NCBI RefSeq assembly: GCF_003730115.1
Contig: NZ_RJVP01000002.1
Span: 186,001 to 250,000, forward strand
Direction: 5' to 3'
Source: Pseudomethylobacillus aquaticus
Lineage (GTDB): Bacteria > Pseudomonadota > Gammaproteobacteria > Burkholderiales > Methylophilaceae
Length of the DNA: 64,000 bases
The translations under genes and the position numbers were made by a program. Shown piece by piece: positions 3,444 to 61,353 of the stretch (positions are counted from its first letter, which is position 1; the number at the start of each line of letters is the position of its first letter). Under the pieces are notes generated by a model, which was not told where the DNA came from, did no database searches, and saw only the letters and a list, made by a program, of their open reading frames with translations.

Positions 3444-4424
3444 ATGAAAAAGGTCAGATGGTTTTTGCACGCCTACCAGGAAAGCCTGCTGTATGGCGCG
3501 GCATTGCTGCTGTTGCTGCTGGCCGTGTTCAAGCCGGAGATAGCGCTACGCCAGAATGTGCATAACTATTTGTTGCTGGCCGATGTTTCGCAAAGCATGA
3601 ATGCGGAAGATGCCGTGCTGGACGGGCGCAACGTCAGCCGTATGGCTTATGTGCGCCACCTGATGCGTAAAACCGTCGAGTCCTCGCCCTGTGGCACCTA
3701 TGTGAGCCTGGGCGTGTTCGCTGCCGAGAATGTGGCGCTCACCTTCATGCCCCTGGAAGTGTGTGCCAACTATGATGTGATCGTCGATGCCATCGACCAT
3801 CTGGAGTGGCGCATGTCCTGGCGTGGTAATAGCAGGCTCAGCTTTGGCGTCAAGGCGGCGGCCACGGTGCTGGATTCACTGAATGCACCCGCTCAGATGT
3901 TGTTCTTCACCGATGGTGACGAGGCGCCCAAGGTCAACGCCATCAACAAGCTGGACCTCCGTGGTGTGCAGATCGGCAAGCAGGTGATCTTCGTCGGCGT
4001 GGGCGGCAAACAGCCGGTGCCTATCCCGCGCTACAACAGCAACAACCAGTGGGTGGGTTTCTGGGCTGCGGATGCCAAGGAGTTCTCGGCGGGTGCAGTG
4101 GGCGTGACCTATAACGACACCAGCAAGGATGACCCGGACCCGGTGGTGGCGTCTGCCGAATTCGACCGCTACCTGTCGCAGCTGGAAGATGGCTATCTGC
4201 GTGAACTGGCGCAGGAGATCGGCGCGCGCTACATCGAGGCGCAGGATGACGCGGCCTTCTACCGCTTCCTGCATGCGCAGCCGCCGGTGGCAACCTTTGT
4301 GACCGCCTATTCCGTACGCTGGCTGTATCTGCTGCTGGCCATCATGCTGGTGCTGGGCACTTTTTATGCTGATATCGCCCGTCGCTGGCTGATGCGGCGC
4401 GGTCCAGGCGCAAGTCCGCTATAA
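3444..4424 (+). CDS. mxaL: MxaL, membrane-anchored vWA protein
   Basis: A 326-residue protein with an N-terminal transmembrane segment (about 15-32), a vWA domain whose MIDAS reads ADVSQSMN at about 48-55, and a C-terminal transmembrane helix (about 293-312). This is the second vWA protein of the mxa operon, partner of MxaC and MxaS in maturing methanol dehydrogenase. ATG at 3444 is chosen over an in-frame TTG two codons upstream that overlaps the mxaK stop. In several methylotrophs mxaD follows mxaL; here the next gene is an unrelated HIT protein, so the operon appears to end at this point. Confidence 0.87.
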   Translation: MKKVRWFLHAYQESLLYGAALLLLLLAVFKPEIALRQNVHNYLLLADVSQSMNAEDAVLDGRNVSRMAYVRHLMRKTVESSPCGTYVSLGVFAAENVALTFMPLEVCANYDVIVDAIDHLEWRMSWRGNSRLSFGVKAAATVLDSLNAPAQMLFFTDGDEAPKVNAINKLDLRGVQIGKQVIFVGVGGKQPVPIPRYNSNNQWVGFWAADAKEFSAGAVGVTYNDTSKDDPDPVVASAEFDRYLSQLEDGYLRELAQEIGARYIEAQDDAAFYRFLHAQPPVATFVTAYSVRWLYLLLAIMLVLGTFYADIARRWLMRRGPGASPL

Positions 4425-4439
4425 TCCAGCCTGGTCGCT

Positions 4440-4473
4440 AATGTAGCGATAAACGCAATGTGGCGATAAACGC
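4440..4473. repeat. Tandem 17-bp direct repeat after mxaL
   Basis: AATGTAGCGATAAACGC at 4440-4456 is followed without a gap by AATGTGGCGATAAACGC at 4457-4473 (16 of 17 identical). It lies in the 74-base gap between mxaL and the HIT gene. A TATAAT hexamer at 4420-4425, overlapping the mxaL stop, could serve as a -10 for the downstream gene, but I see no good -35. Confidence 0.6.
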
Positions 4474-4498
4474 CAAGCTGTTATTCAACGAGAGACGT

Positions 4499-4912
4499 AT
4501 GGCTGCATGTGATCTGTGTGACAACCCGGGTGGCGAACTGCTGTGGCAGGACGCCTTGTGTCGTGTGGTGCGTATCGATGAGCCGGACTATCCGGGCTTT
4601 TGCCGGGTGATCCTCAATCGCCACATCAAGGAAATGACCGATCTGAATGTGGAAGACCGCATGCGCCTGATGGACATCGTGTTCCGTGTGGAGCAGGCCG
4701 TGCGTGACGTGATGAACCCGGACAAGATCAACCTGGCCAGCTTCGGCAATGTGATCCCGCATCTGCACTGGCATGTGATCCCGCGCTTCACGCTGGACCG
4801 GCATTTCCCTAACGCCATCTGGGGGCCTGCCCGCCGTGAGACGCCTGCACACGCCATCGATGTGCACACCGCCAGCAAACTCAAGAACCGCATCCAGCAG
4901 TTGCTGACCTGA
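4499..4912 (+). CDS. HIT family nucleotide hydrolase
   Basis: A 137-residue histidine-triad protein. The defining motif HLHWHVIPRF is present near residue 93, with the three alternating histidines that form the nucleotidyl-transfer site. HIT proteins hydrolyse AMP-lysine, AMP adducts or dinucleoside polyphosphates; the substrate here cannot be told. The N-terminus carries a CDLC pair that could bind metal, as in some bacterial HIT proteins. I chose ATG at 4499, preceded by a GAGAG ribosome site, instead of an in-frame start at 4460. The 3' end lies 22 bases from the convergent ferredoxin gene. Confidence 0.88.
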   Translation: MAACDLCDNPGGELLWQDALCRVVRIDEPDYPGFCRVILNRHIKEMTDLNVEDRMRLMDIVFRVEQAVRDVMNPDKINLASFGNVIPHLHWHVIPRFTLDRHFPNAIWGPARRETPAHAIDVHTASKLKNRIQQLLT

Positions 4913-4934
4913 CCAGCCCAGCCCGCAAGCGGCA

Positions 4935-5249
4935 CTAAACCAGCAGCCGCTCCACCAGCTTGCCCTGCACCAGATGGGAGGCGATGATCTCGTCGATATC
5001 TTCCTGGTCCACGAAGGTGTACCACACCGCTTGCGGGTAGACCACCATCACCGGCCCCAGGCCGCAACGGTCCAGGCAGCCGGCGCGGTTGATGCGCACG
5101 CCATCCGCGCCGTTCAGACCCAGTTTCTTGACGCGTGACTTCATGTGGTCAAATGCCGCTTCCGCGCCGCTGTCGGCACAGCACTGTGCGCCATCTTCGC
5201 GCGCATTCAGGCAGAAAAACACATGGTATCGGTAATGGCTGTCGCTCAT
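4935..5249 (-). CDS. Thioredoxin-like [2Fe-2S] ferredoxin
   Basis: A 104-residue protein of the thioredoxin-like [2Fe-2S] ferredoxin group (COG3411 type). Cluster ligands are probably the N-terminal FFCLN cysteine, the CC pair near residue 23 and the CLDRC pair near residue 60. It resembles the small ferredoxins found beside hydrogenase or Nuo-like modules, but no such partner is present here. It is followed on the same strand by nothing obvious (4913-4934), and its start lies 36 bases after the TonB-like gene, so the two may be co-transcribed. Electron partner unknown. Confidence 0.8.
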   Translation of the reverse strand: MSDSHYRYHVFFCLNAREDGAQCCADSGAEAAFDHMKSRVKKLGLNGADGVRINRAGCLDRCGLGPVMVVYPQAVWYTFVDQEDIDEIIASHLVQGKLVERLLV

Positions 5250-5285
5250 AAGCTGGCTATCTTCATCTGCTTGGGTGGTAGGGGT

Positions 5286-6200
5286 TCAATCTGAATTCAG
5301 GCTGTCCTGGCGAGTAAAGGTCCAGGTGCGTTCTATGCTGAGGATGTCGGTATCCACACGGATATCGTCAGGTAACGGCGCGTAGGGGGCACCCAGTTCC
5401 ACGATGCGGCGCGCGGCATCGTCCAGCACGGCATGGCCGGAACTCTGGTTGATTTCGATGCGTTCCAGGCTGCCATCCTGACGGATCGACACCGTCATGC
5501 GCAGGCGGCCATACAGTTTCTTTTCACGGGCTTCCGCCGGGTAATTGAGATTGCCGATGCGCTGCACCTTTTGCCGCCAGGCTTCCACATAAGCAGCAAA
5601 GCGGGATTCCTGGGTACGCGCGCCTATGAATTTCTGGCGTGGGCGCTGTTCGTAGGCCTGCTGCTGCTTGGAGATCTGGGTCTGTAAGCGCGCGATCTCC
5701 ATGCTGCTGGCGGCCAGATCGACGCCGCTGAGGGGTTTGCGCGGCTGGTCTGCCGTACCGGATCTGGCGGGTTCGGGCACTGGCAGCACAGGCTCAGCCT
5801 GCGAACGGCTGAGTAACTCCTGGGCTTGTTTTTCCAGCTCTGCCACACGTGCCTGCTTCTGCTCCACTTCCTGTTCGGCGATGTCCGGCACTGGCTGCGG
5901 TTTGGGCGCTTTGCTGCTGGTGGCACGTGCTTCCACAGGCAATGGCGACTGGCTGCGTACCACCTTGGCGGTGTTGCCGCCCGCATCCAGGTTGGCCTGC
6001 GCCAGTGCCTTGGGGTCGTCCGGAGGTGTTTGCGATTTTGCATTCACCAGCACCACATCCATGGGCGGGGTGTTGTGCTTGAGGATGTGTGGTTCGGGCG
6101 GCTGGAAGTGCAGATTGACGATCAGCACCAGGTGGATCAATCCCGATACCGCCAGCATGGCGGTCAAAGGATCGCGCCAGCGCTGCAACATGAACTTCAC
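5286..6200 (-). CDS. TonB-family energy-transducing protein
   Basis: A 304-residue protein with a TonB layout: a short cytoplasmic head, one N-terminal membrane anchor (about 12-30), a long proline/glutamine/alanine-rich periplasmic region with likely coiled coil (about 95-175), and a C-terminal TonB-like domain containing NYPAEAREKKLYGRLRMTVSI and the YAPLPDDI tail region. It probably couples the proton-motive force to an outer-membrane receptor, but no receptor or ExbBD genes are nearby. The start may be GTG at 6200, overlapping the mpl stop (GTGA), or ATG at 6191. It is in the same direction as mpl and metH. Confidence 0.82.
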   Translation of the reverse strand: MKFMLQRWRDPLTAMLAVSGLIHLVLIVNLHFQPPEPHILKHNTPPMDVVLVNAKSQTPPDDPKALAQANLDAGGNTAKVVRSQSPLPVEARATSSKAPKPQPVPDIAEQEVEQKQARVAELEKQAQELLSRSQAEPVLPVPEPARSGTADQPRKPLSGVDLAASSMEIARLQTQISKQQQAYEQRPRQKFIGARTQESRFAAYVEAWRQKVQRIGNLNYPAEAREKKLYGRLRMTVSIRQDGSLERIEINQSSGHAVLDDAARRIVELGAPYAPLPDDIRVDTDILSIERTWTFTRQDSLNSD

Positions 6201-7633
6201 CCCGCCAGCCTTTGCAGTAACTTCTGATGGATGCCGCCGAAGCCGCCATTGCTCATGACCAGCACATGGTCACCCGGCCGGGCCGCCTGCACGATGGCAT
6301 CCACCAGCAGATCCAGGTGTTCCGAGACCACTGTTCTGGCGGCGATAGCCTGCAATGCCGCTGCAGCATCCCAGCCCAGGTTGCCCGCATAGCAGAACAC
6401 CAGATCGGCGTCGCGCAGACTGTCCGGCAGGGCGGCTTTCATCACGCCCAGCTTCATGGTGTTGGAGCGTGGCTCCAGCACCGCGAGGATGCGGCTGGCG
6501 CCAACCTTGGCGCGTAGCCCGGCCACTGTGGTGGCGATGGCGGTCGGGTGGTGGGCAAAGTCGTCGTAGACGGTGATGTCATGCACCACACCGCGCACTT
6601 CCATGCGGCGCTTCACGTTCTGGAACTCTGCCAGCGCCGCGATGGCGACATCCGGTGCCACGCCCACATGGCGTGCGGCAGCGATGGCTGCCAGGGCATT
6701 CATGCGGTTGTGCTCACCCAGCAACGCCCAGTGCACGCGGCCCAGCCGCTGGTGCTGGAAGTGCACATCGAAACTGCCTTCGGCATCGACATGGCTGGCG
6801 GTCCAGCCGTCAGTGGCACCGAAGTTCTCCATGGCAAACGTCTCTACCGGGGTCCAGCAACCGCGCTGGATCACGCGCTGCAAGCTGGCCTCCGTGCCGT
6901 TGGCCACCACCAGGCCCTGTTGCGGCACGGTGCGCACCAGGTGGTGGAACTGCGTTTCGATGGCGGCAAGGTCGGCAAAGATATCCGCGTGGTCGAATTC
7001 CAGATTGTTCAGCACCGCCGTGCGTGGCCGGTAATGCACGAATTTGGAACGCTTGTCGAAAAAGGCGGTGTCGTATTCGTCGGCTTCGATCACGAAGAAC
7101 GGCGAACATGCATCATCATCGGGCGCGCTATTGCCTGGTGTGCTGGTTGGGCGCTGGTACAGGCTGTCATTGGGCGAGATGCCAGGCAGGCGCGCCGAGA
7201 TGCCGAAGTTCTGTGGCACGCCACCGATCAGAAAGCCCGGTGCCAGGCCGGCATAGTCCAGTATCCAGGCCAGCATGGAACTGGTGGTGGTCTTGCCGTG
7301 GGTGCCCGCCACCGCCAGCACCCAGCGGCTGTGCAGCACGTTCTCTGCCAGCCACTGCGGGCCAGAGATGTAGGGCAGGCCGCGATTGAGGATCTCCTCC
7401 ATCAGCGGATTGCCACGCGACACCACATTGCCGATCACATAGATATCCGGGTTCAGCGCGGTCTGCTGGGGTGCAAAACCTTCGATGAGCTGGATGCCCT
7501 GCGCTTCGAGCTGCGTGCTCATGGGCGGGTACACATTGGCGTCACAGCCGGTGACGGTATGACCGGCCTGCTTGGCCAGCACCGCGATGCCGCCCATGAA
7601 GGTGCCGCAGATGCCAAGGATATGGATGTGCAT
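6197..7633 (-). CDS. mpl: Mpl, murein tripeptide ligase
   Basis: A 478-residue Mur-ligase family enzyme that attaches the recycled tripeptide L-Ala-gamma-D-Glu-meso-DAP to UDP-MurNAc, in cytoplasmic peptidoglycan recycling. The N-terminus HILGICGTFMGGIAVLAK is characteristic of Mpl, followed by the ATP-binding GTHGKTTT motif near residue 109 and the central EADEYDTAFFDKRSKF block that separates Mpl from MurC. The C-terminal Mur domain includes VYDDFAHHPTAI. Length is normal. It starts 7 bases from the end of metH and overlaps the TonB-like gene. Confidence 0.95.
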   Translation of the reverse strand: MHIHILGICGTFMGGIAVLAKQAGHTVTGCDANVYPPMSTQLEAQGIQLIEGFAPQQTALNPDIYVIGNVVSRGNPLMEEILNRGLPYISGPQWLAENVLHSRWVLAVAGTHGKTTTSSMLAWILDYAGLAPGFLIGGVPQNFGISARLPGISPNDSLYQRPTSTPGNSAPDDDACSPFFVIEADEYDTAFFDKRSKFVHYRPRTAVLNNLEFDHADIFADLAAIETQFHHLVRTVPQQGLVVANGTEASLQRVIQRGCWTPVETFAMENFGATDGWTASHVDAEGSFDVHFQHQRLGRVHWALLGEHNRMNALAAIAAARHVGVAPDVAIAALAEFQNVKRRMEVRGVVHDITVYDDFAHHPTAIATTVAGLRAKVGASRILAVLEPRSNTMKLGVMKAALPDSLRDADLVFCYAGNLGWDAAAALQAIAARTVVSEHLDLLVDAIVQAARPGDHVLVMSNGGFGGIHQKLLQRLAG

Positions 7634-7640
7634 GGGGTTC

Positions 7641-10600
7641 CTAGCTCAGGTTGGGCGCCAGCCAGCGCTCCAGATAGTCCACTGGCAGGCCGCGACGTGC
7701 GGCCATGTCGGCCAGCTGGTCTGCGCCTATCTTGTCCACGCTGAAGTAGCGCGCTTGCGGGTGCGCCAGATAAAAGCCGGACACGGCCGCCGCTGGCGTC
7801 ATGGCGAACGAGTCGGTCAGCGTCATGCCGATGGCCTCGGCCTGCAGCCAGTGGAACATGTCCGGTTTGACGGTATGGTCCGGGCAGGCCGGGTAGCCGG
7901 GCGCCGGCCGTATGCCCTGATATTCTTCCTTGATCAACGCTGCCTTGCTCAGTTGTTCGCCCGCTGCATAGCCCCACAGGTCGGTACGCACGCGTTCATG
8001 CAGATATTCCGCAAAGGCTTCAGCCAGGCGGTCAGCTAGTGATTTCAGCATGATGCTGTTGAAATCGTCATGGGCGGCCAGGAAGCGCTGTTCATGCTTT
8101 TCTATGCCCAGGCCGCCCGTCACTGCGAACAGGCCGATGTAGTCGGCGATGCCGCTGGGCTGGCCATCGACCAGCTTGGGCGCGATGAAGTCGGCCAGAC
8201 ACTGGTTGGGTCTGGCCACCCCGTCAACCACCGGCTTGACGCTCTGCTGGCGCATGCCATACCAGGTGAACGCCACTTCGCTGCGGGTCTCGTCGGTATA
8301 GATTTCGATATCGTCGTCATTGACGCTATTGGCCGGTAACAAGGCCACCACGCCGTTGGCGGTCAACCAGCGGCCATCGATGATCTTCTTGAGCATGGCC
8401 TGCCCTTCGGCGAACAGCTTGCGCGCCGCTTCGCCAACGACCGCGTCATCGAGGATGGCCGGGTAAAAGCCAGCCAGGTCCCAGGTCTGGAAGAACGGGC
8501 CCCAGTCTATGTAATCCGCCAGCACGCTAAGATCCATATTGTTGATCTCGCGGCGACCGATGAACTTGGGCTTGACCGGGGCTTGTGCGCCGCTGAATGC
8601 CACACGCGTCTTGTTGGCGCGCGCATCTTCGATGCTGAGCAGGGGCGTGCCTTTTTTGTTGGCGTGCTGCTGGCGTGCCCGTTCATAGTCGTTGGCGACC
8701 TCGGCCACATAGTGGTCGCGCTGCTCGGGCGTGAGCAGTGACTGCATCACCGACACCGAGCGCGAGGCGTCCGGCACGTAGATGACAGGGCCGTCGTAGT
8801 GGGGTGCGATCTTCACGGCGGTGTGCGCGCGCGAGGTGGTGGCACCGCCGATCAGCAGCGGCGTCTTGAGGCCACGGAAATGGTCGTCGCGCTGCATCTC
8901 GCGGGCCACATGCGCCATTTCTTCCAGCGAGGGCGTGATCAGCCCGGACAGGCCGATGATGTCGGCATGCTCGGCCTTGGCCATGGCCAGGATCTCGCTG
9001 GCCGGCACCATCACGCCCATATTGACCACTTCGAAATTATTGCACTGCAGCACCACCGACACGATGTTCTTGCCAATGTCGTGCACATCGCCCTTCACGG
9101 TGGCGATCACCACCTTGCCCTTGGGCTTGGATTTCGCTCCCGTGCGTTCTTCTTCAGCCAGTTTTTCGGCTTCGATGTAGGGGATCAGGTGGGCCACTGC
9201 CTGTTTCATCACGCGAGCGGATTTGACCACCTGTGGCAGGAACATCTTGCCTTGGCCGAACAGGTCACCCACGATGTTCATGCCGTCCATGAGCGGACCT
9301 TCGATCACGTGGATGGGTCGGCCACCCTTGTTGAACACCGCCTGACGTGCCTCTTCGGTATCTTCGACGATGAATTCGGTGATGCCATGCACCATGGCGT
9401 GTGCCAGGCGCTTCTCCACCGGCACCGGGGCTTCTGCGCTGCCGCGCCATTCGCTGGTCGCCATCTCTTTCTTGCCGCCTGCTTTGAGCGTGGCGGCGAT
9501 GGCGATCATGCGCTCGGTAGCGTCCGGTCTGCGGTTCAGCACCACGTCCTCGACGCACTCGCGCAGCTCGGCATTCAGGTCGTCGTAGACGCCCATCATG
9601 CCGGCATTGACGATGCCCATGGTCATGCCCGCCTTGATGGCGTGATACAGGAACACGGTGTGGATGGCTTCACGCGCCGGGTCGTTGCCACGGAAGCTGA
9701 AGCTCACATTGGACACACCGCCGGAGATGCGCGCGTAGGGCAGATTGTCCTTGATCCAGCGTGTGGCATTGATGAAATCCACAGCGTAGTTGTTATGTTC
9801 CTCGATGCCGGTGGCGATGGCGAAGATGTTGGGGTCAAAGATAATATCTTCTGGCGGAAAGCCAATCTCGCTCACAAGCAGATCGTAGGCGCGCTTGCAG
9901 ATCTCGATCTTGCGCTCGTAGGTATCGGCCTGTCCCTTCTCGTCGAAGGCCATGACGATGACGGCCGCGCCATAGCGACGGCATAGCGTGGCCTGGCGCA
10001 GGAACTCGGCCTCGCCTTCCTTCATGGAAATGGAGTTGACGATGGCCTTGCCCTGCACGCACTTGAGGCCGGCTTCGATGACTTCCCATTTGGAGGAGTC
10101 GATCATGACCGGCACGCGCGCGATGTCGGGCTCGGAGGCGATCAGGTTGAGGAAATGCGTCATCGCCTTGACGGCGTCCAGCATGCCTTCGTCCATGTTG
10201 ATGTCAATCACCTGCGCGCCGTTCTCCACCTGCTGGCGTGCCACGCTGAGTGCTTCTTCGTATTGCTCGTTGATGATCATGCGCGCGAACGCCTTGGAGC
10301 CGGTGACGTTGGTGCGCTCGCCCACGTTGACGAACAGCGCGTCATCGTCGATGACGAACGGCTCCAGCCCGGACAGGCGCGTCGCGACCGGCGGTGTGGG
10401 CAGCAGGCGTGGTGGCAGGCTGCTGACTTCGCGGGCGATGGCGGCGATGTGCGGCGGCGTGGTGCCGCAGCAACCACCGGCGATATTGACGAAGCCGCTG
10501 GTGGCGAATTCGCGCAGCAGCGAGGAGGTATCGGCCGGTTTTTCGTCAAAGCCGGTGTCGCTCATCGGGTTGGGCAAGCCCGCGTTGGGGTAGATGCACA

Positions 10601-55338: not shown

Positions 55339-56037
55339 ATGGCAATCAAGATCGAAAAGAAAATCACCGGTTACAACGTGGTGACAGAAGAAGACAAAGC
55401 CAAGGCCGCGGCCGAAGCACACGCTGCGGCGCAAAAATCCGCTGAAGTGGTGCAAATGGGCGAGCCGCTGAGCCGTCCGGAAAAACTGGTCGGCAACACC
55501 TACAAGATCAAGACCCCGGTCACCGAACACGCGCTGTACATCACCATCAACGACATCGTGATGCACGAAGGCACGCCGCAGGAACACCGCCGCCCGTTCG
55601 AAGTGTTCATCAACTCCAAAAACATGGAACACTTCCAGTGGATCGTGGCGCTCACCCGCGTCATGTCCGCCGTGTTCCGCAAGGGTGGCGATGTCACCTT
55701 CCTGGTGGAAGAACTGCACAGTGTGTTCGACCCCAGCGGTGGTTATTTTAAAAAGGGCGGCAAATACATCCCCAGCCTGGTGGCTGAGATCGGCGAAGTG
55801 CTGGAACAGCACCTGCAAGAGATCGGCATGCTGAAAAAGTCCGGCCCGGACGAACACCAGAAAAAGCTCATCGAAGAAAAGAAGACCGAATACCTGCAAA
55901 AGCACGCAGACGAGCCAGTGAACGAAGAAGGCTTCCCCAAGGGTGCGCAGCTATGTAACAAGTGCCACACCAAGGCCAGTATCGTGATGGACGGGTGTTT
56001 GACGTGTTTGAATTGTGGGGAAAGTAAGTGCGGTTGA
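55339..56037 (+). CDS. Ribonucleotide reductase small part with zinc ribbon (NrdJb)
   Basis: A 232-residue protein resembling NrdJb of the split class II reductase of Pseudomonas. Its C-terminal tail carries CNKC, then CLTCLNC and a final CG (the last residues are ESKCG), which supply the redox cysteines and a zinc ribbon. Blocks such as TPQEHRRPFEVFINSKN and GYFKKGGKYIPSLVAEIGEVLEQHL are typical. The stop is 26 bases before the left end of the mobile element. Confidence 0.88.
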   Translation: MAIKIEKKITGYNVVTEEDKAKAAAEAHAAAQKSAEVVQMGEPLSRPEKLVGNTYKIKTPVTEHALYITINDIVMHEGTPQEHRRPFEVFINSKNMEHFQWIVALTRVMSAVFRKGGDVTFLVEELHSVFDPSGGYFKKGGKYIPSLVAEIGEVLEQHLQEIGMLKKSGPDEHQKKLIEEKKTEYLQKHADEPVNEEGFPKGAQLCNKCHTKASIVMDGCLTCLNCGESKCG

Positions 56038-56047
56038 TTTTTAAAAC

Positions 56048-56064
56048 GGGCGAGAGCCCCTTTT
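56048..56064 (+). terminator. Weak terminator after nrdJb
   Basis: GGGC-GAGA-GCCC with flanking AAAAC/CTTTT arms. The last T of the tract is also the first base of the mobile element end. Confidence 0.5.
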
Positions 56065-56071
56065 GTTCTTG

Positions 56072-56131
56072 ACACCATAAGTTGCAGGTTTTACAGCATA
56101 AGCTGCAACTTTTAACACCATAAGTTGCAAG
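56072..56131 (+). repeat. Three subterminal sites of the left element end
   Basis: ACACCATAAGTTGCAGG (56072-56088), ACAGCATAAGCTGCAAC (56093-56109) and ACACCATAAGTTGCAAG (56115-56131), all in the same direction and spaced 21 and 22 bases, are the likely transposase binding sites. Confidence 0.85.
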
Positions 56132-56136
56132 TAATT

Positions 56137-56160
56137 AAAAGCCCGCACATGCGGGCTTTT
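56137..56160. terminator. Hairpin terminator inside the left element end
   Basis: AAAAGCCCGC-ACAT-GCGGGCTTTT, a perfect 10-bp stem with a T run on each strand. It could insulate the element from transcription coming out of the nrdJ operon. Confidence 0.88.
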
Positions 56161-56216
56161 GTCTGTGCTCAACGACCGTTATCGACTTAAGCGGACGGTC
56201 AGTTTGAAGCTGCTGA

Positions 56217-56411
56217 ATGAGACAACTGACGCTTAATTCTTTAAGGAGCCTTACGCAAAAAGAACTCATTGCCCTGTGCAAGGAGTTACAGCTTGAAGTG
56301 CTGAATTGGCATGGCGATGGGCAATCGGCAGAAGGCTGCCTTATTGAGCGGCGGCAAGCCATGTTGCTGGGTATTCACTGCGATGCATCGTCAAGACTGC
56401 TAGCTGCGTGA
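56217..56411 (+). CDS. Small hypothetical protein
   Basis: A 64-residue open frame (MRQLTLNSLRSLTQKELIALC...). No family recognised. It has a helical, charged middle (QKELIALCKELQLEVLNWHG). A clear ribosome site is missing before the ATG at 56217; GGAG at 56245-56248 would suit a later, non-ATG start. It may be a genuine small gene of the element or chance. Confidence 0.3.
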   Translation: MRQLTLNSLRSLTQKELIALCKELQLEVLNWHGDGQSAEGCLIERRQAMLLGIHCDASSRLLAA

Positions 56412-56429
56412 GGAGGCCTTGAATGCGGA

Positions 56430-56545
56430 AAAAACAAACGGCCGCTTCAGCGGCCGTTGCATGCGAGGTTCTCTCGGTGCTTTCGCACCTAGCCACTCCA
56501 GGTGGCACCCGGCTGCCCGGGCGGCGCTACGTTTTTTCACCCGCT
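56430..56545 (-). ncRNA. Candidate structured RNA on the - strand
   Basis: Reading the - strand, five hairpins follow each other: CCCGG-GCAG-CCGGG, CCAC-N5-GTGG, GGTGC-GAAA-GCACC with a GNRA tetraloop, CGAG-N5-CTCG, and AACGGCCGCT/AGCGGCCGTT followed by TGTTTTTT (a rho-independent terminator). No open frame fits. From memory it resembles phage C4 antisense RNAs, but I could not check this. Confidence 0.45.
56437..56458 (-). terminator. Rho-independent terminator of the candidate RNA
   Basis: A 10-bp stem, AACGGCCGCT with AGCGGCCGTT and a 2-base loop. On the - strand TTTGTTTTTT follows. Confidence 0.75.
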
Positions 56546-56592
56546 TAACGCAACTTTTACCCCGCCAATCTTACATTGGCTGTTCACTTTTT

Positions 56593-56619
56593 GGAATGTT
56601 CACGTGACGTGAACATTCC
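56593..56619. promoter_or_regulatory. 27-base palindrome
   Basis: GGAATGTTCACGT, a central G, then the exact complement ACGTGAACATTCC. Flanking TGTTCA (56581-56586) and TGAACA (56627-56632) add an outer inverted pair. It lies upstream of the candidate RNA on the - strand and may be an operator. Confidence 0.6.
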
Positions 56620-56888
56620 GTCATATTGAACAGAAAGTGCGGTTCCTCCTTTGATCTGTCGGCATGGCTATGACTGTCCCCAGATCACCATTTATACCTT
56701 CTGGGATTTTCGCGTCATTGATGGTGCAAGAGGTCTGGTAAACCGTTTCGTTGCTGTGATTCGCCAGACACACGTTCTGTGAGGACATTGCCATGGTCGG
56801 CCAAAAGCCAAAATACTAACCATGGCTGTTAAGAAAAATAGTGCCGATATGTCGGAGAGCATGCATTTGTTACTTAAATGTATTATTT

Positions 56889-56904
56889 ATACATAAATAT
56901 GTAT
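56889..56904. promoter_or_regulatory. C-box-like inverted repeat before the controller gene
   Basis: ATACATA-AA-TATGTAT, perfect 7-bp arms with a 2-base centre, about 115-130 bases before the HTH regulator start. Controller proteins of restriction systems bind repeats like this near their own promoter. Confidence 0.5.
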
Positions 56905-57018
56905 TATTAGAATGCGAATGTTGACATAATTATATCTAAAAAAGATTTATATATATCAATAAAAGACATATTCTTTGCATTAATGCGATAACGTGGTTTA
57001 ATTGGTGCTTGGAAACTG

Positions 57019-57300
57019 TTGCCGGGATTTTCAGTGGAGCTAAAAGACCTGATACGCGGTACGCATCATCTAATTGAGGCAAAAGAAAAAAAGCGTATTA
57101 CTCAAGTCGACATGGCCCATCGTATTGGTGTGGGGCACCGCACCTATTTGGAGTATCAACGGGGAACTAACGCCCCTTTGGCCATGAAAGCACTATTGAA
57201 TCTGCTGAATTTGCTGGAAAACGACGAGATTGTGAAGGTGGTACGCGAATGGAAAGAAGCTGCAGGTCAGTCCAATGTGGAAAGCAGCGATTCACCATAG
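57019..57300 (+). CDS. HTH regulator, likely controller (C) protein
   Basis: A 93-residue Xre-like protein. The helix-turn-helix reads ITQVDMAHRIGVGHRTYLEYQRGTNAP. It begins at TTG 57019 or GTG 57034; the GTG has GGGA upstream. It is directly before the methyltransferase genes on the same strand, the usual place for a controller protein that delays endonuclease expression when the system enters a new cell. The function is inferred from context. Confidence 0.7.
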   Translation: MPGFSVELKDLIRGTHHLIEAKEKKRITQVDMAHRIGVGHRTYLEYQRGTNAPLAMKALLNLLNLLENDEIVKVVREWKEAAGQSNVESSDSP

Positions 57301-57319
57301 CTCTGCAGACGGGACTTAA

Positions 57320-58534
57320 ATGGTGAGAGATGACATGAATCTGGATAACGCCTCCGAAGCCATTTTGGCGATACATAACCCGATGGGAGTTTCGACTGGC
57401 CCTCGTGATCAATTTGACAAGGCAATAAAACGCGTAGAAAAGTGGTCTGCTGGCATTGAGGGGACAGGGAATGCGCTAATCCACGGAGATAATTTAACAG
57501 CGCTTCGACTGCTAGCCAGAACGCACGCTGGCTCTGTGAAATGTGCGTACCTCGACCCTCCGTACAATAACGGTGAAAGCTACCAGCATTATTTCGACAG
57601 TATGAGTCACGATGAGTGGCTGGAAGCAGTCACTACCCGCTTACAACAGATCAGAGCCCTGCTCCGCGAAGATGGTAGTGTCTGGATATCCATTGATGAT
57701 TCCGAGCTTCACTATCTTAAAGTTTCCGCTGATGAAGTATTCGGGCGAAACAATTTTGTAGGCACGATCATTTGGGAGCGCAGGACGACACGGGAAAACC
57801 GCAAAGTGCTCTCGAGAAACCATGAGTATCTTCTCGTCTATGCAAAAAATATAGAGGCATGGTCGAGGGTACGTAATTCATTGCCACTCACGCAGGATGT
57901 GAAGAAACGTTACAAGAATCTAGATTCCGATCCCCGTGGCCCATGGCAGTCCGTATCCGCTAATGTCCAAGAAGGACATGCAACCCCACAGCAATATTAT
58001 GCACTTCGTGCGCCCAATGGACGGGTCCACCATCCTCCTAAAGGGCGGTGCTGGGTATATAGCGAACCAAAAATGCTCGAAGAAATCGTGAAAAACAATG
58101 TTTGGTTTGGCAAAGACGGTAACGCTGTCCCACGCTTAAAGCGTTTCTTGACTGATCGTAAAAAAGGGCTGACCCCCGAAACTCTATGGCGTGCAGATGA
58201 GGTTGGGACAACGAGTACAGCCAAGAAACACCTCCTGGAGTTGTTCAAGGAGACCTCCCTATTCGACACTCCAAAACCCGAACAATTGATTTATCGCATC
58301 CTACAAATCAGTACTCACCCGGGTGATTTGGTGCTTGACCCCTATCTTGGTTCCGGAACCACTGCGGCAGTAGCCCACAAGATGAGCAGAGGCTATATAG
58401 GCATAGAAGTCGGTGCGCATATCAAGACACACTGTGTAGAGAGATTGCAGCAAGTTGTCGGCGGGGAAAAAGGTGGTATATCCAAACTGATTGGGTGGCA
58501 AGGTGGCGGCGGTTTTGACTTCTATCGACTATAG
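57320..58534 (+). CDS. Site-specific DNA adenine methyltransferase, beta class
   Basis: A 404-residue methyltransferase. The catalytic DPPY (YLDPPYNNG, residues 79-82) comes before the SAM-binding motif (VLDPYLGSGTTAAVAHKM, near 345), which is the beta-class order. The middle forms the target-recognition region. It resembles type III Mod and type IIS adenine methyltransferases. The start may be ATG 57320 or ATG 57335 (GAGAG upstream). It overlaps the second methyltransferase gene. Confidence 0.93.
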   Translation: MVRDDMNLDNASEAILAIHNPMGVSTGPRDQFDKAIKRVEKWSAGIEGTGNALIHGDNLTALRLLARTHAGSVKCAYLDPPYNNGESYQHYFDSMSHDEWLEAVTTRLQQIRALLREDGSVWISIDDSELHYLKVSADEVFGRNNFVGTIIWERRTTRENRKVLSRNHEYLLVYAKNIEAWSRVRNSLPLTQDVKKRYKNLDSDPRGPWQSVSANVQEGHATPQQYYALRAPNGRVHHPPKGRCWVYSEPKMLEEIVKNNVWFGKDGNAVPRLKRFLTDRKKGLTPETLWRADEVGTTSTAKKHLLELFKETSLFDTPKPEQLIYRILQISTHPGDLVLDPYLGSGTTAAVAHKMSRGYIGIEVGAHIKTHCVERLQQVVGGEKGGISKLIGWQGGGGFDFYRL

Positions 58535-59882
58535 AGAACAAGTAGAGCAACAGGCAGACCTTTTTCGCCCCATCTATTATCTGGGATGCAAAAATAGCTT
58601 TACATCAGCCATTCAGGCAGCAATCGACGACGTAGATCCTAGCGGCGGTCGACTGCTTGACTTGTTTGCTGGTACGGGCTCTGTTGGGGCGGCGTTAGGG
58701 TGTCGTCGCGAAGTGACGACAGTCGATGTGCAGGAATACTCTCGTGTCCTATGCTCGGCGGTTTTAAGTCCATCAGCTTTGTCGCAGGCCGAGATAACAA
58801 ACATCGTTGCTCGTGCCGCATCAAATGAAACTACGAAACAGGTGCTATGGTGTCTCCAGCCACTACTTGACCATGAACGAGAGTGTATTCGCGAAGCTAT
58901 CATGGGCGACTTCAGTGAGCTCGTCGAATTACTGGAATCTCCCCCATTAGCGGTGCACTCCATCCCCGAATTTGCCGCTCCTTCTACCCGTCTTGGCGAC
59001 GCTGCTCATGAGGCTATACATAGATTGCACGGGAAAGGATTGTGGCAATCGGCAGAAACTACGGTGTCTCGGTACTTTGGAGGCTTATATTTTTCGTTTA
59101 TTCAGGCCGCCATGCTTGATGCACTTTTATCTGTTGCCAATTCCTCTGATGAACAATGTCGTGACACATTAACTGCAGCCGCTCTCGGGACTGCAAGTCA
59201 ACTTGTAAATACCGTAGGGAAACAGTTCGCTCAGCCAATTCAACCAAAAAACAAATCTGGCGCCGTGAAGCCCGGACTTGTGAAAGTTGTTCAGCGTGAT
59301 CGTTCGCTAGATACATTGCAACTGTATCGGACATGGTTGGATCGGTACGCCAGGTTGCCAAGCGCAAGAGGCAAGTCACAAGCCATTCGCCAAGATTACC
59401 TTGCCGCAATTGGTCAGAACGCTTCCAATTGCACCGTGGCATATGCTGATCCGCCCTATACAAGAGATCATTACAGTCGCTTTTATCATGTCCTTGAAAC
59501 TATGTGCCTTCGAGACAATCCGGCTATCACGAAGGTAATGAAGGACAGTAAACGCGTCCCTAGTCGTGGCGCGTATCGAGAGGACCGCCACCAATCAGCA
59601 TTTTGTATTCGATCCGCTGCACCCGCAGCCTTTGATGCGCTTTTCAAAGCGACACGGGAACATGATCTACCTTTGGTGCTCTCATATTCACCCCATGAAA
59701 CTGGGGATGGGACGCATCCTCGGGTGGTGTCTATGAACCAGATAGTCGAACTGGCACACGCCCACTATGATCGAGTCGAAGTTTGCACTGTCGACGGGGT
59801 GACTCACAACAAACTCAACAGTAGCGAGCTGACCTTAAAGACTCGCGACCAAGCAGAAATACTTCTCAAGTGTTTCCGCTAA
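58503..59882 (+). CDS. D12-class DNA adenine methyltransferase
   Basis: A methyltransferase of about 460 residues. The N-terminal block YLGCKNSFTSAIQ and SAM motif LLDLFAGTGSVGAALG come first, and the catalytic ADPPYTRDHYSRFYHVLE lies near residue 318, the Dam/D12 order. The start is uncertain: the frame opens with TTG 58491, and GTG 58503 has GGGTGG upstream; both overlap the preceding gene by about 30-45 bases. A second adenine methyltransferase suggests that each strand of an asymmetric target needs its own enzyme. Confidence 0.9.
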   Translation: MAAVLTSIDYREQVEQQADLFRPIYYLGCKNSFTSAIQAAIDDVDPSGGRLLDLFAGTGSVGAALGCRREVTTVDVQEYSRVLCSAVLSPSALSQAEITNIVARAASNETTKQVLWCLQPLLDHERECIREAIMGDFSELVELLESPPLAVHSIPEFAAPSTRLGDAAHEAIHRLHGKGLWQSAETTVSRYFGGLYFSFIQAAMLDALLSVANSSDEQCRDTLTAAALGTASQLVNTVGKQFAQPIQPKNKSGAVKPGLVKVVQRDRSLDTLQLYRTWLDRYARLPSARGKSQAIRQDYLAAIGQNASNCTVAYADPPYTRDHYSRFYHVLETMCLRDNPAITKVMKDSKRVPSRGAYREDRHQSAFCIRSAAPAAFDALFKATREHDLPLVLSYSPHETGDGTHPRVVSMNQIVELAHAHYDRVEVCTVDGVTHNKLNSSELTLKTRDQAEILLKCFR

Positions 59883-59900
59883 GAGTTTGTCGTGAAGCGA

Positions 59901-61064
59901 TTAAGGTTCTGGCGTAAGCAGCTCAACAGGAAGCAAGTTGGGAGGCGCATCGGGCCATGCAGCACGCAAATTCTCCGGCAAGATACGCCTCTCTCTCATC
60001 AAGCGCCGGTGTCCATGGGGCGGAATTGGTCCCAACAGTTCAGAGACGAAGGTGTAGTCGGCAGATGTGACAGGAACTATGGTGTAGCGGAAAGAGCGGC
60101 GATCAAGTTTGGTAGCAACCAGAATCATCCGGCTATCATCAGCACCAACCTTGTATTCCAAGTCGGCTATAGCGTGTAACTCAAGGCGGTAGTTCTGGCT
60201 CTGATTCACAAACAAGCGAATTGATTCGACAGGTCCAAGTACATCATCCCTTGAAACATGCTGCACAAAGACATTTTTCGCTACCCCTTCATAACCAAAG
60301 AACTCCATTAACGCACTTTTTCCCACGTCGGCTTGGCCTGTTCGGTTAACGGGTATTTCTCGCACCAATACCTCTGGCGTACCTAGATCCACACCATCAA
60401 CGAGGGTTGCATGGATCGCTGGGGCTGCTGGAGCTGGAACGCCGGCTGCTGGAGCTGGAGGAGCCGCAGCGATAGTGGAGGAGAAACGTACGCGCCCGTT
60501 AGCCATTGCTTGTTCGCGAACCTTTTCATCATCGAGCGAAAGTAGCCTTCCGGTTTCCTGCTGTGCTGATAGCCAATTATCGATCTCTAATTGGGCAGCT
60601 TCTGCATCCGCCCCTGATAGATTCTGTACGCTGAAAGCTTCCCAATTACCAGGAGGGGGAGTGTCCATACTAACTTGACCCAGACCACGTCGTGTCAAAT
60701 TCCCCGAACCAGTAACTAGACGGAGATTGTTTCCCTGCCAAAACCACGAGAATTTCGGATGGAAAGTGCTATTTGGGTGATTGTGAAAAAAAACATTAAC
60801 CGCCAACAATGCAGGATACGAGGCTACTCTTTCACTGAGGCATAGCAACGCTTCGGCATTGGTTATTGCATCGATACCGACGATCAAATGGAAGTGCCGA
60901 CCAGCAGCAAGCATGTTGGCAATGTTGGGGCTGTCGAAGAGCGCATCAATCCCCCCTTTTGAAGCAAACGCAAAAACCCCGCCACCTTTGTCCGCATTGA
61001 CTGCAGCGTTGTCAATTGCATGCAGAAGTTTTGCAGTTCCAGGTTGCTGAAACACGAATGCCAT
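59901..61064 (-). CDS. PLD-fold restriction endonuclease (BfiI/NgoFVII-like)
   Basis: A 387-residue protein, convergent with the methyltransferases. The N-terminal half is a phospholipase-D-like nuclease with HPKF and GSGNLTRRG (HxK plus the following GSxN). A proline/alanine linker (about 205-220) leads to a C-terminal domain beginning VLVREIPVNRTGQADVG that fits a B3-like DNA-binding domain, as in BfiI. I start at ATG 61064; the open frame beyond it runs into the element end. Restriction enzymes of this fold cut outside or within asymmetric sites without metal. Confidence 0.75.
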   Translation of the reverse strand: MAFVFQQPGTAKLLHAIDNAAVNADKGGGVFAFASKGGIDALFDSPNIANMLAAGRHFHLIVGIDAITNAEALLCLSERVASYPALLAVNVFFHNHPNSTFHPKFSWFWQGNNLRLVTGSGNLTRRGLGQVSMDTPPPGNWEAFSVQNLSGADAEAAQLEIDNWLSAQQETGRLLSLDDEKVREQAMANGRVRFSSTIAAAPPAPAAGVPAPAAPAIHATLVDGVDLGTPEVLVREIPVNRTGQADVGKSALMEFFGYEGVAKNVFVQHVSRDDVLGPVESIRLFVNQSQNYRLELHAIADLEYKVGADDSRMILVATKLDRRSFRYTIVPVTSADYTFVSELLGPIPPHGHRRLMRERRILPENLRAAWPDAPPNLLPVELLTPEP

Positions 61065-61169
61065 TTGGTTCTTCCCGATCGTAAATTGGCTGGGATTGAT
61101 TCTAAGCCAATGGATTCGGTGTTGAAAAGCAGCGCCAACTGGATTACTGGATGTTTTTAAGAAGACGAG

Positions 61170-61296
61170 CTGCAAGTTATACGTACATTGTGTAAATAAA
61201 CTTGCACCTTTTGGAGTAGTACAGTTGTGCTTTATGTTGATACTGCCACTTGTAAATAACTTCACCTGCTACAGAAGAGGCTGCAAGTTATGGTGT
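61170..61296 (-). repeat. Subterminal sites of the right element end
   Basis: Reading inward on the - strand: ACACCATAACTTGCAG (61296-61281), a weaker CAACATAAAGCACAAC-type copy (61242-61224), and ATAACTTGCAG (61180-61170). Spacing is about 55 bases. These match the left-end sites. Confidence 0.7.
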
Positions 61297-61353
61297 CAAG
61301 AACATTTATTTTGTTGTCGGTAGCCAAACAGCTTTAGTAACCTTTGCACAAAT

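What the first reader, a model, noticed from the sequence alone, without database searches (positions are those of the whole stretch)
56064..61304. Restriction-modification cassette bounded by Tn7-like transposon ends, with no transposase
Seen: a 24-base terminal inverted repeat with one mismatch starting TGTTCTTGACACCATAA. There are three direct ACACCATAA(G)TTGCA-type sites at 21-22-base spacing at the left and three more loosely spaced ones at the right. The dense and spread arrangement is like the right and left ends of Tn7. The inside is AT-rich and encodes only a regulator, two methyltransferases and a nuclease. Known: Tn7-like elements begin with TGT, have multiple TnsB sites, and frequently carry defence genes. 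Inferred: a small non-autonomous element moved in trans by a TnsABC machine elsewhere. It was inserted 26 bases after the nrdJb stop.
Basis: partly seen in the sequence, partly recalled or inferred. Interest (0 to 1): 0.8.

Follow-up and report, generated by a model that had tools for sequence, protein, structure and literature searches.

The report
Transposase-less Tn7-like element beside nrdJb
A 5.2 kb restriction-modification cassette sits between Tn7-like transposon ends just after the nrdJb gene; it looks like a stripped-down relative of larger self-moving elements that use the same docking site in related bacteria.

Summary
A 5,241-bp element (56064-61304) starts 26 nt after the nrdJb stop. 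It has a 24-nt terminal inverted repeat (1 mismatch), three left-end sites (spacing 21/22) and four right-end sites at 0/56/79/111 nt. Relatives carry this layout on TnsA-B-C-D transposons downstream of nrdJb. Over 187 Methylophilaceae genomes, 12 of 13 strong TnsD matches lie 4-44 kb downstream of nrdJb; the 13th is on another contig. Of 99 nrdJb 3' flanks read, 26 pass a simple end rule (25 after inspection), against 1 of 1,104 control stretches. nrdJb is thus very probably a Tn7-like attachment site, not named in the papers I searched. No TnsB or TnsD gene was found in the window's genome. A TnsD C-terminal stub (56217-56411) marks the element as an internal-deletion derivative with probable R-M cargo. 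A similar 4.8 kb element with a perfect 5-bp duplication sits at nrdJb in G357. Movement in trans is inferred: this copy lacks a perfect duplication and could be an immobile relic.

The parts
   Evidence: Pfam TSCPD; Tn7-like ends start 23-33 nt (mean 30.0, n=23) after its stop in relatives
56038..56063 (.). 26 nt between the nrdJb stop and the element; ends in CCTTT
56064..56132 (+). left end: terminus TGTTCTTG and three TnsB-type sites starting at 56072, 56093 and 56115
   Evidence: 84% identical over 77 nt to the left end of the TnsABCD element of G310, 95% over 63 nt to the end in G305
56217..56411 (+). TnsD C-terminal stub (64 aa)
   Evidence: 81% nt identity over 136 nt to a TnsD C-terminal fragment in G310; pairwise hhalign to TnsD alignment A1 E 2.2e-7, 35% over 51 columns; 56% over 59 aa to the G310 stub, itself related to full TnsD at E 9.8e-18. 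Not listed by the genome search with A1 at E <= 1e-10
56430..56561 (.). non-coding block conserved with G310 and with the stretch just after tnsD of G407
   Evidence: 87% over 132 nt and 80% over 123 nt; no Rfam family at its gathering score
57019..57300 (+). small HTH-like regulator (93 aa), possible R-M controller
   Evidence: no Pfam family; weak NCBIfam RstR match E 2.7e-5, below cut-off
57320..58534 (+). N6/N4 DNA methyltransferase (404 aa)
   Evidence: Pfam N6_N4_Mtase E 9.1e-47; PADLOC MTase_III E 4.2e-112
58491..59882 (+). D12-class adenine methyltransferase (463 aa)
   Evidence: Pfam MethyltransfD12 E 5.7e-12; 34.6% identity over 96% of the query to a DNA adenine methylase on an A. 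pittii plasmid
59901..61265 (-). possible phospholipase D-family restriction nuclease; start perhaps at 61064 (387 aa), because the longer frame runs into the right-end sites
   Evidence: 32% identity over 37% of the query to a 'phospholipase D family protein' beside the homologous methylase; HPK and GSGN motifs (meaning recalled); no Pfam or NCBIfam family; weak PADLOC ZacB match E 6.2e-4
61168..61304 (-). right end: four TnsB-type positions at 61296, 61240, 61217 and 61185 (0/56/79/111), the last degenerate, and terminus AAGAACA
   Evidence: same offsets within 1 nt in G310, G300, G407 and G443
61305..61323 (.). right flank TTTATTTTGTTGTCGGTAG, which follows CCCC directly in G191 (site without this element)

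Best explanation
The element is a non-autonomous derivative of a Tn7-like transposon family that homes to the 3' end of nrdJb in Methylophilaceae. In the full elements TnsB binds the end sites, TnsA and TnsB cut and join, TnsC bridges, and TnsD most likely recognises nrdJb and directs insertion about 30 nt past its stop (roles taken from Tn7). The window's element lost tnsABC and nearly all of tnsD by internal deletion. It kept both ends, a TnsD stub, and a probable restriction-modification cargo. A compatible TnsABCD machine entering the cell could move it between nrdJb sites. Shown here: end architecture, use of the site across the family, linkage of this TnsD lineage to nrdJb, the TnsD stub, and no helper gene found in this genome. 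Inferred: binding of TnsD to nrdJb, mobilisation in trans, and function of the cargo.
For: Right-end offsets 0/56/79/111 and left-end spacing 21/22 match elements with tns genes in relatives. TnsA, TnsB, TnsC and TnsD of G310 and G304 match PF08722, PF13683 with PF09299, PF05621 and PF06527 above the curated cut-offs. Perfect 5-bp duplications in 8 of 11 delimited elements. 12 of 13 strong TnsD matches lie downstream of nrdJb; in a tree of 22 of the 25 matches those 12 plus G445 fall on one side of a branch (87/99). Ends lie at a near-constant distance from the stop, 30.0 +/- 2.1 nt, n=23. TnsD stub. A second small element without tns genes at nrdJb, with a perfect duplication (G357). No helper found in the own genome.
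Against: This copy has no perfect 5-bp duplication; only TTT is repeated relative to the G191 junction. No helper was found in the genome. Inner and outer right-end positions are partly degenerate. No second copy of this element or of its nuclease was found (1 of 399 genomes drawn from the order, the own one), so movement of the small form is undocumented. No right end was found behind the left ends of G470, G418, G477, G116, G428 or G303 in about 40 kb, so solitary ends, and hence decay, may be the common fate. The tree branch is not among the best supported, and its G357 row was probably a wrong reading frame.
Confidence: 0.6

Rival explanations
1. Immobile relic: a complete nrdJb-homing Tn7-like transposon inserted here and lost tnsABCD in place. 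The R-M genes are its leftover cargo, and the small form never moved as such.
For: TnsD stub and the adjoining non-coding block remain; target duplication imperfect; no helper found in the genome; left ends without a detectable right end are frequent at this site in relatives.
Against: Six of seven end sites are still clear and the termini are identical at 23 of 24 positions; by inference long neutral decay would have eroded them. The small element of G357 has a perfect duplication, though that also fits a recent in-place deletion.
Confidence: 0.35
2. Ordinary R-M island acquired by homologous recombination or another integrase; the repeats are dispersed repeats unrelated to the cargo.
For: Other insertions accumulate at this locus: G191 has a different ~1.15 kb insert about 19 nt away, and G310 carries a displaced 41-codon nrdJb 3' fragment.
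Against: The 23-mer occurs nowhere else in the genome, and its layout matches TnsABCD elements at the same gene.
Confidence: 0.03
3. The ends belong to another DDE family (Tn5053- or IS-like) rather than to a TnsABCD transposon.
For: TGT...ACA termini and multiple sites also occur in related families (recalled).
Against: Similar ends in relatives bracket tnsA-tnsB-tnsC-tnsD with a TnsA endonuclease domain, at the same site.
Confidence: 0.02

Closest known systems
Tn7 (attTn7 at glmS)
   Same: TnsA-B-C-D gene set in the full relatives, TGT...ACA termini, several sites per end with a dense and a spread side, 5-bp duplications (Tn7 features recalled), insertion a short distance after a conserved gene whose coding end TnsD binds (PMC2918618, abstract).
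   Different: The gene is nrdJb, not glmS, with a different TnsD; the window's element has no tns genes and lacks a perfect duplication.
Tn7-like transposons carrying defence cargo (PMC8649781; start of abstract and passages seen)
   Same: R-M modules are named there as the most common and widespread innate immune systems in the cargo.
   Different: As far as the passages show, elements there were delimited around a transposase; the window's element has none.
Engineered mini-Tn7
   Same: Would work like it: ends plus cargo, helper supplied in trans (recalled; papers on it seen only in listings).
   Different: Natural, with a TnsD stub and its own cargo; mobilisation in trans not shown.
R-M cassette of Acinetobacter pittii plasmid pR1041-ab1-11k (NZ_OR095730.1)
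   Same: A site-specific DNA methyltransferase, a DNA adenine methylase and a convergent phospholipase D-family gene side by side.
   Different: The first methylase gene points the other way; identity is 34.6% for the adenine methylase and 32.2% over 37% for the nuclease (the first methylase was not compared); plasmid context; Tn7-like ends were not looked for there.

Membership tests
Autonomous Tn7-like transposon | encodes TnsB-type DDE transposase with TnsC and a target selector | tested here: not met
   no TnsB or TniQ match in the own genome; only a TnsD C-terminal stub. PF09299 alone misses some (it found nothing in G357 and G375, where alignment A2 did), so A2 is the better test
Autonomous Tn7-like transposon | 5-bp target-site duplication | tested here: not met
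   CCTTT / TTTAT; only TTT repeated; a 2-nt loss on one side would explain it, unproven
Non-autonomous derivative of the nrdJb-homing Tn7-like family | both ends with the family's site number, orientation and spacing | tested here: met
   left 21/22, right 0/56/79/111, as in G310, G300, G407 and G443; fourth right position degenerate
Non-autonomous derivative of the nrdJb-homing Tn7-like family | located at the family's attachment site | tested here: met
   26 nt after the nrdJb stop; range in relatives 23-33 nt, n=23 including this one
Non-autonomous derivative of the nrdJb-homing Tn7-like family | sequence remnant of the parent's tns genes | tested here: met
   TnsD C-terminal stub
Non-autonomous derivative of the nrdJb-homing Tn7-like family | can be moved by the family's transposase in trans | not testable with these tools
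   needs a transposition assay
CRISPR-associated transposon (CAST) | Cascade or Cas12k genes and a CRISPR array in the element | not tested
   no Cas or array search was made; profile searches of the window's cargo ORFs gave methyltransferase matches and weak HTH and nuclease matches only
Restriction-modification system (cargo) | methyltransferase(s) plus cognate nuclease | tested here: inconclusive
   two methyltransferases clear; nuclease only by weak homology and motifs, no Pfam or NCBIfam family, structure model unusable, pLDDT 37.2

The most novel reading that the evidence does not exclude
nrdJb is an undescribed Tn7-like attachment site, and around it lives a two-tier population: full TnsABCD elements, and small helper-dependent satellites made by internal deletion that keep a TnsD stub near the left end and carry defence genes. 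The satellites parasitise the machinery and docking site of the full elements.
Probability: 0.35. Interest if true: 0.65.

Novelty: new variant of a known kind. Interest (0 to 1): 0.5.

Why it matters
It points to nrdJb (recalled as part of a split class II ribonucleotide reductase) as a homing site for a Tn7-like family. I found no mention of this pairing in the open-access library searched or in passages of PMC10293859, PMC8649781 and PMC11406308; supplements and subscription papers were not seen. It supplies a TnsD lineage with delimited elements and perfect duplications, so its specificity can be tested directly, and it may offer a further landing site for mini-Tn7-style tools. It also suggests that surveys keyed on transposase genes would miss transposase-less elements that carry defence cargo.

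Tried and rejected
Whole element against plasmids (megablast): no match. Left end against plasmids at low identity: 38 records, best E 0.6, chance-like. Terminus with 1 mismatch in 300 genomes of the order: 5 genomes, namely the own one with both ends and four single hits. Two of the four lack TGT (GGTTCTTG), one reads TGCTCTTG, and one (G072, TGTGCTTG) lies on another contig than its nrdJb. I took all four as chance; for G072 I fetched 20 kb around it and the motif scan showed only isolated weak sites. Rfam on 56000-57100: four matches, all far below gathering scores. Nuclease against solved structures: one alanine/proline-rich match, E 0.014; viral contigs: none; structure model too poor to search with. 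D12 methylase against solved structures: none at 0.01.

Right ends: composite scores were 88.0 G310, 88.8 G300, 83.4 G407, 79.1 G443, 64.7 G357, 56.6 G406, 49.8 G422, 44.9 window, 38.0 G472, 26.7 G364 and 13.8 G311. None was found in about 40 kb of G470, G418, G477, G116, G428 and G303 (G470's best, -6.5, is an artefact at the edge of the stretch), nor in 20 kb of G304, G361, G072 or G191, nor in 3.5 kb of G305. For G369 the composite is below zero; I picked its right end by eye from the inner sites, and it then showed a perfect duplication. For G300 I used the second of two left ends.

Rows dropped before counts; 26 of 99 flanks passed; I dropped G367 (sites at 10 and 34 nt, not an end), leaving 25. 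The rule also misses delimited elements (G369, G300). Distance statistic: G374 and G116 also dropped (TGT misplaced relative to the first site), leaving 23. The 99 flanks come from 98 genomes (G422 twice) of the 172 with nrdJb; the other 74 were not read, about two thirds of them from the small-genome genera g4, g5 and g152 (2 of these included), so 25/99 is not a family-wide rate. TnsD tree: 22 of 25 matches used; the G375 fragment on C4, the G310 stub and G463 were left out.
Full report
What is there. The element spans 56064-61304 (5,241 bp). It begins 26 nt after the nrdJb stop with TGTTCTTGACACCATAAGTTGCAG and ends with the inverted repeat of it, one mismatch in 24. Three left-end sites start at 56072, 56093 and 56115; four right-end positions on the other strand start at 61296, 61240, 61217 and 61185. 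The 23-mer occurs twice in the 2.55-Mb genome, at these places only, with 0 hits for the reversed control. Element GC is 48.7% against 59.2% for the rest of the window.

The full relatives. nrdJb was found in 19 of 31 genomes, all 19 of the same family, and their 3' flanks showed similar ends in several. G310 and G304 carry tnsA-tnsB-tnsC-tnsD behind such a left end, and so do G364, G369, G406, G407, G422 and G443 by tblastn, the tnsD match of G443 being partial. G300 keeps tnsC and tnsD but only a C-terminal piece of TnsB. The proteins of G310 and G304 match PF08722, PF13683 with PF09299, PF05621 and PF06527 above the curated cut-offs. The G310 element is 29,314 bp with GATAT on both sides. 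In all, 8 of 11 delimited elements have perfect 5-bp duplications: G310, G364, G406, G407, G422, G443, G357 and G369. The three without are the window's element, G300 and G472; the boundaries of the last two are uncertain, and the right end of G369 was picked by eye.

The end architecture matches. Right-end sites of G310, G300, G407 and G443 lie at 0, 56-57, 79-80 and 111 nt; those of the window's element at 0, 56, 79 and 111. The composite right-end score is 44.9 for the window and 79-89 for those four; other elements range from 64.7 down to below zero (listed in Tried and rejected), and the best of 23 shuffled regions is -17.4. Caveat: the site model comes from 70 left-end sites chosen for an exact CATAA, so it favours that core.

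nrdJb as attachment site. Alignment A1 of three TnsD proteins was searched in 187 genomes of the family: 21 have a match at E <= 1e-10, 25 matches in all. nrdJb was searched in the same 187: 172 have it. Of the 13 matches with E below 1e-65, 12 lie on the nrdJb contig, downstream of it, at about 4 to 44 kb (G300, G310, G304, G422, G407 twice, G406, G369, G364, G361, G443, G072). The 13th (G445) is near the start of another contig, while nrdJb of G445 has a left end next to it and its contig stops 6.5 kb later. Of the 12 weaker matches, one is the TnsD stub inside the G310 element; 3 are on the nrdJb contig but 67-260 kb away on the upstream side (G408, G423, the second of G369); 8 are on other contigs, where linkage cannot be judged (one of them, G375 C4, is a fragment at a contig edge and could be of the nrdJb lineage). 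In a tree of 22 of these 25 proteins, the 12 linked ones plus G445 form one side of a branch (87/99, not in the best-supported class; two rows have long branches, and the G357 row was probably a wrong frame).

Named relatives. One of the five shows nrdJb within the fetched locus (L065).

Flank survey. Of 99 nrdJb flanks, 26 pass a simple rule (two CATAA sites 20-24 nt apart within 200 nt); one is clearly not an end, leaving 25; control stretches from the same loci pass in 1 of 1,104. Distance from stop to TGT is 23-33 nt, mean 30.0, SD 2.1, n=23. The sequence between stop and end differs between genomes while the distance stays, which fits recognition of the gene end. That TnsD binds nrdJb is inference from Tn7 (abstract of PMC2918618).

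No helper here. PF09299 (the same model found matches in 5 of 20 relatives), PF06527, TnsD A1 and TnsB A2 all find nothing in the own genome; A2 gave no first-look candidate there. The genome is in 21 contigs, so a gap could hide a gene. Of 20 genomes chosen mostly for ends at nrdJb, PF09299 found a match in 3 (G472, G462, G344); the more sensitive A2 found 5 (also G357 and G375). None of these is shown to be at nrdJb, but all except G472's lie on other contigs. The other 15, the own genome included, had none at E <= 1e-20. Such occupied sites without transposase are frequent, but among those examined only the window's element and G357 show both ends; G428, for instance, looks like a solitary left end followed by core genes, judged by eye. 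G357's genome has a more distant TnsB and TnsD pair on another contig, so it is not free of Tn7-like genes.

How it arose. ORF 56217-56411 is a TnsD C-terminal remnant: 81% DNA identity over 136 nt to a TnsD C-terminal fragment in G310, pairwise hhalign E 2.2e-7 to A1, 56% over 59 aa to the G310 stub, which matches full TnsD at E 9.8e-18. The following non-coding block is shared with G310 and lies just after tnsD in G407. So the element is best read as left end, deletion of tnsABC and most of tnsD, then cargo and right end. G357's 4,805-bp element starts with a 155-aa ORF that aligns to the TnsD C-terminus by pairwise hhalign (E 9.1e-9, 23% identity) but not by tblastn at 1e-3, so its stub is less sure; it carries an HNH-like ORF among others (by eye).

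Empty site and duplication. In G191 the flanks run together as CCCCTTTATTTTGTTGTCGG, with a different ~1.15 kb insert about 19 nt further on and 91% identity beyond it. Against this site the window shows CCCCTTT|TGTTC and GAACA|TTTATTTTG: only TTT is repeated. A 2-nt loss on either side of a 5-bp duplication would explain it; this is not proven and counts against a recent, undisturbed insertion.

Cargo. A small HTH-like regulator, an N6/N4 methyltransferase, a D12 methyltransferase and a convergent, possibly PLD-family nuclease. A plasmid of A. pittii has the same set of three enzymes. The nuclease was found in 1 of 399 genomes drawn from the order, the own one. The restriction function is inferred; the nuclease has no Pfam or NCBIfam family and the structure model was unusable.

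Literature. Full-text searches for Tn7-like with TnsD, attachment site and ribonucleotide reductase gave 0 papers, and for Tn7 with nrdJ 3 papers that look unrelated from title and abstract start. Passages of PMC10293859 (glmS, tRNA, comM) and PMC11406308 (glmS, tRNA, parE) name other targets; 'nrd' occurs 0 times in the main texts of PMC10293859 and PMC8649781, and 'ribonucleotide' 0 times in PMC11406308. The library is open-access papers only and supplements were not read, so absence there is not proof of novelty. PMC8649781 states that R-M modules are the commonest immune cargo (passage), so the cargo itself is ordinary.

Verdict. The finding is real, and its family identity is very likely (about 0.93, my estimate). 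Mobilisation in trans is plausible but untested; decay in place is the main rival.

Noticed in passing
window 56430-56561; G310 and G407 copies: Non-coding block of ~130 nt conserved near the tnsD 3' end in three elements, with a predicted consensus fold (RNAalifold -36.8, three sequences); function unknown, no Rfam match at gathering score.
   Followed up: partly
L028 / G310:C10:143611-143733; G308:C40:123365-123457: Displaced 3' fragments of nrdJb (41 and 31 codons) about 30 kb and 7 kb downstream of the intact gene: possible carried attachment sites or traces of another integration route.
   Followed up: partly
G407 (L185-L187), G422 (L188-L189): Apparent tandem Tn7-like elements at nrdJb: in G407 a second left end with its own tns genes starts right after the first element; in G422 a second left end follows the first right end.
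   Followed up: partly
G470, G418, G406, G445, G371, G462 nrdJb flanks: Very similar left ends (TGTGCGACAC[CT]CCATAAG type) next to different flanks in three genera, suggesting recent spread.
   Followed up: no
G369 (L179), 3505-10266: Minus-strand cargo operon that by eye resembles a Wadjet/MksBEF-type system; not checked by any profile.
   Followed up: no
   Followed up: no
window 56064-56087 and 61281-61304: Left and right termini are alike at 23 of 24 positions, more than in G310, where they differ in the first positions; could reflect conversion between ends.
   Followed up: no
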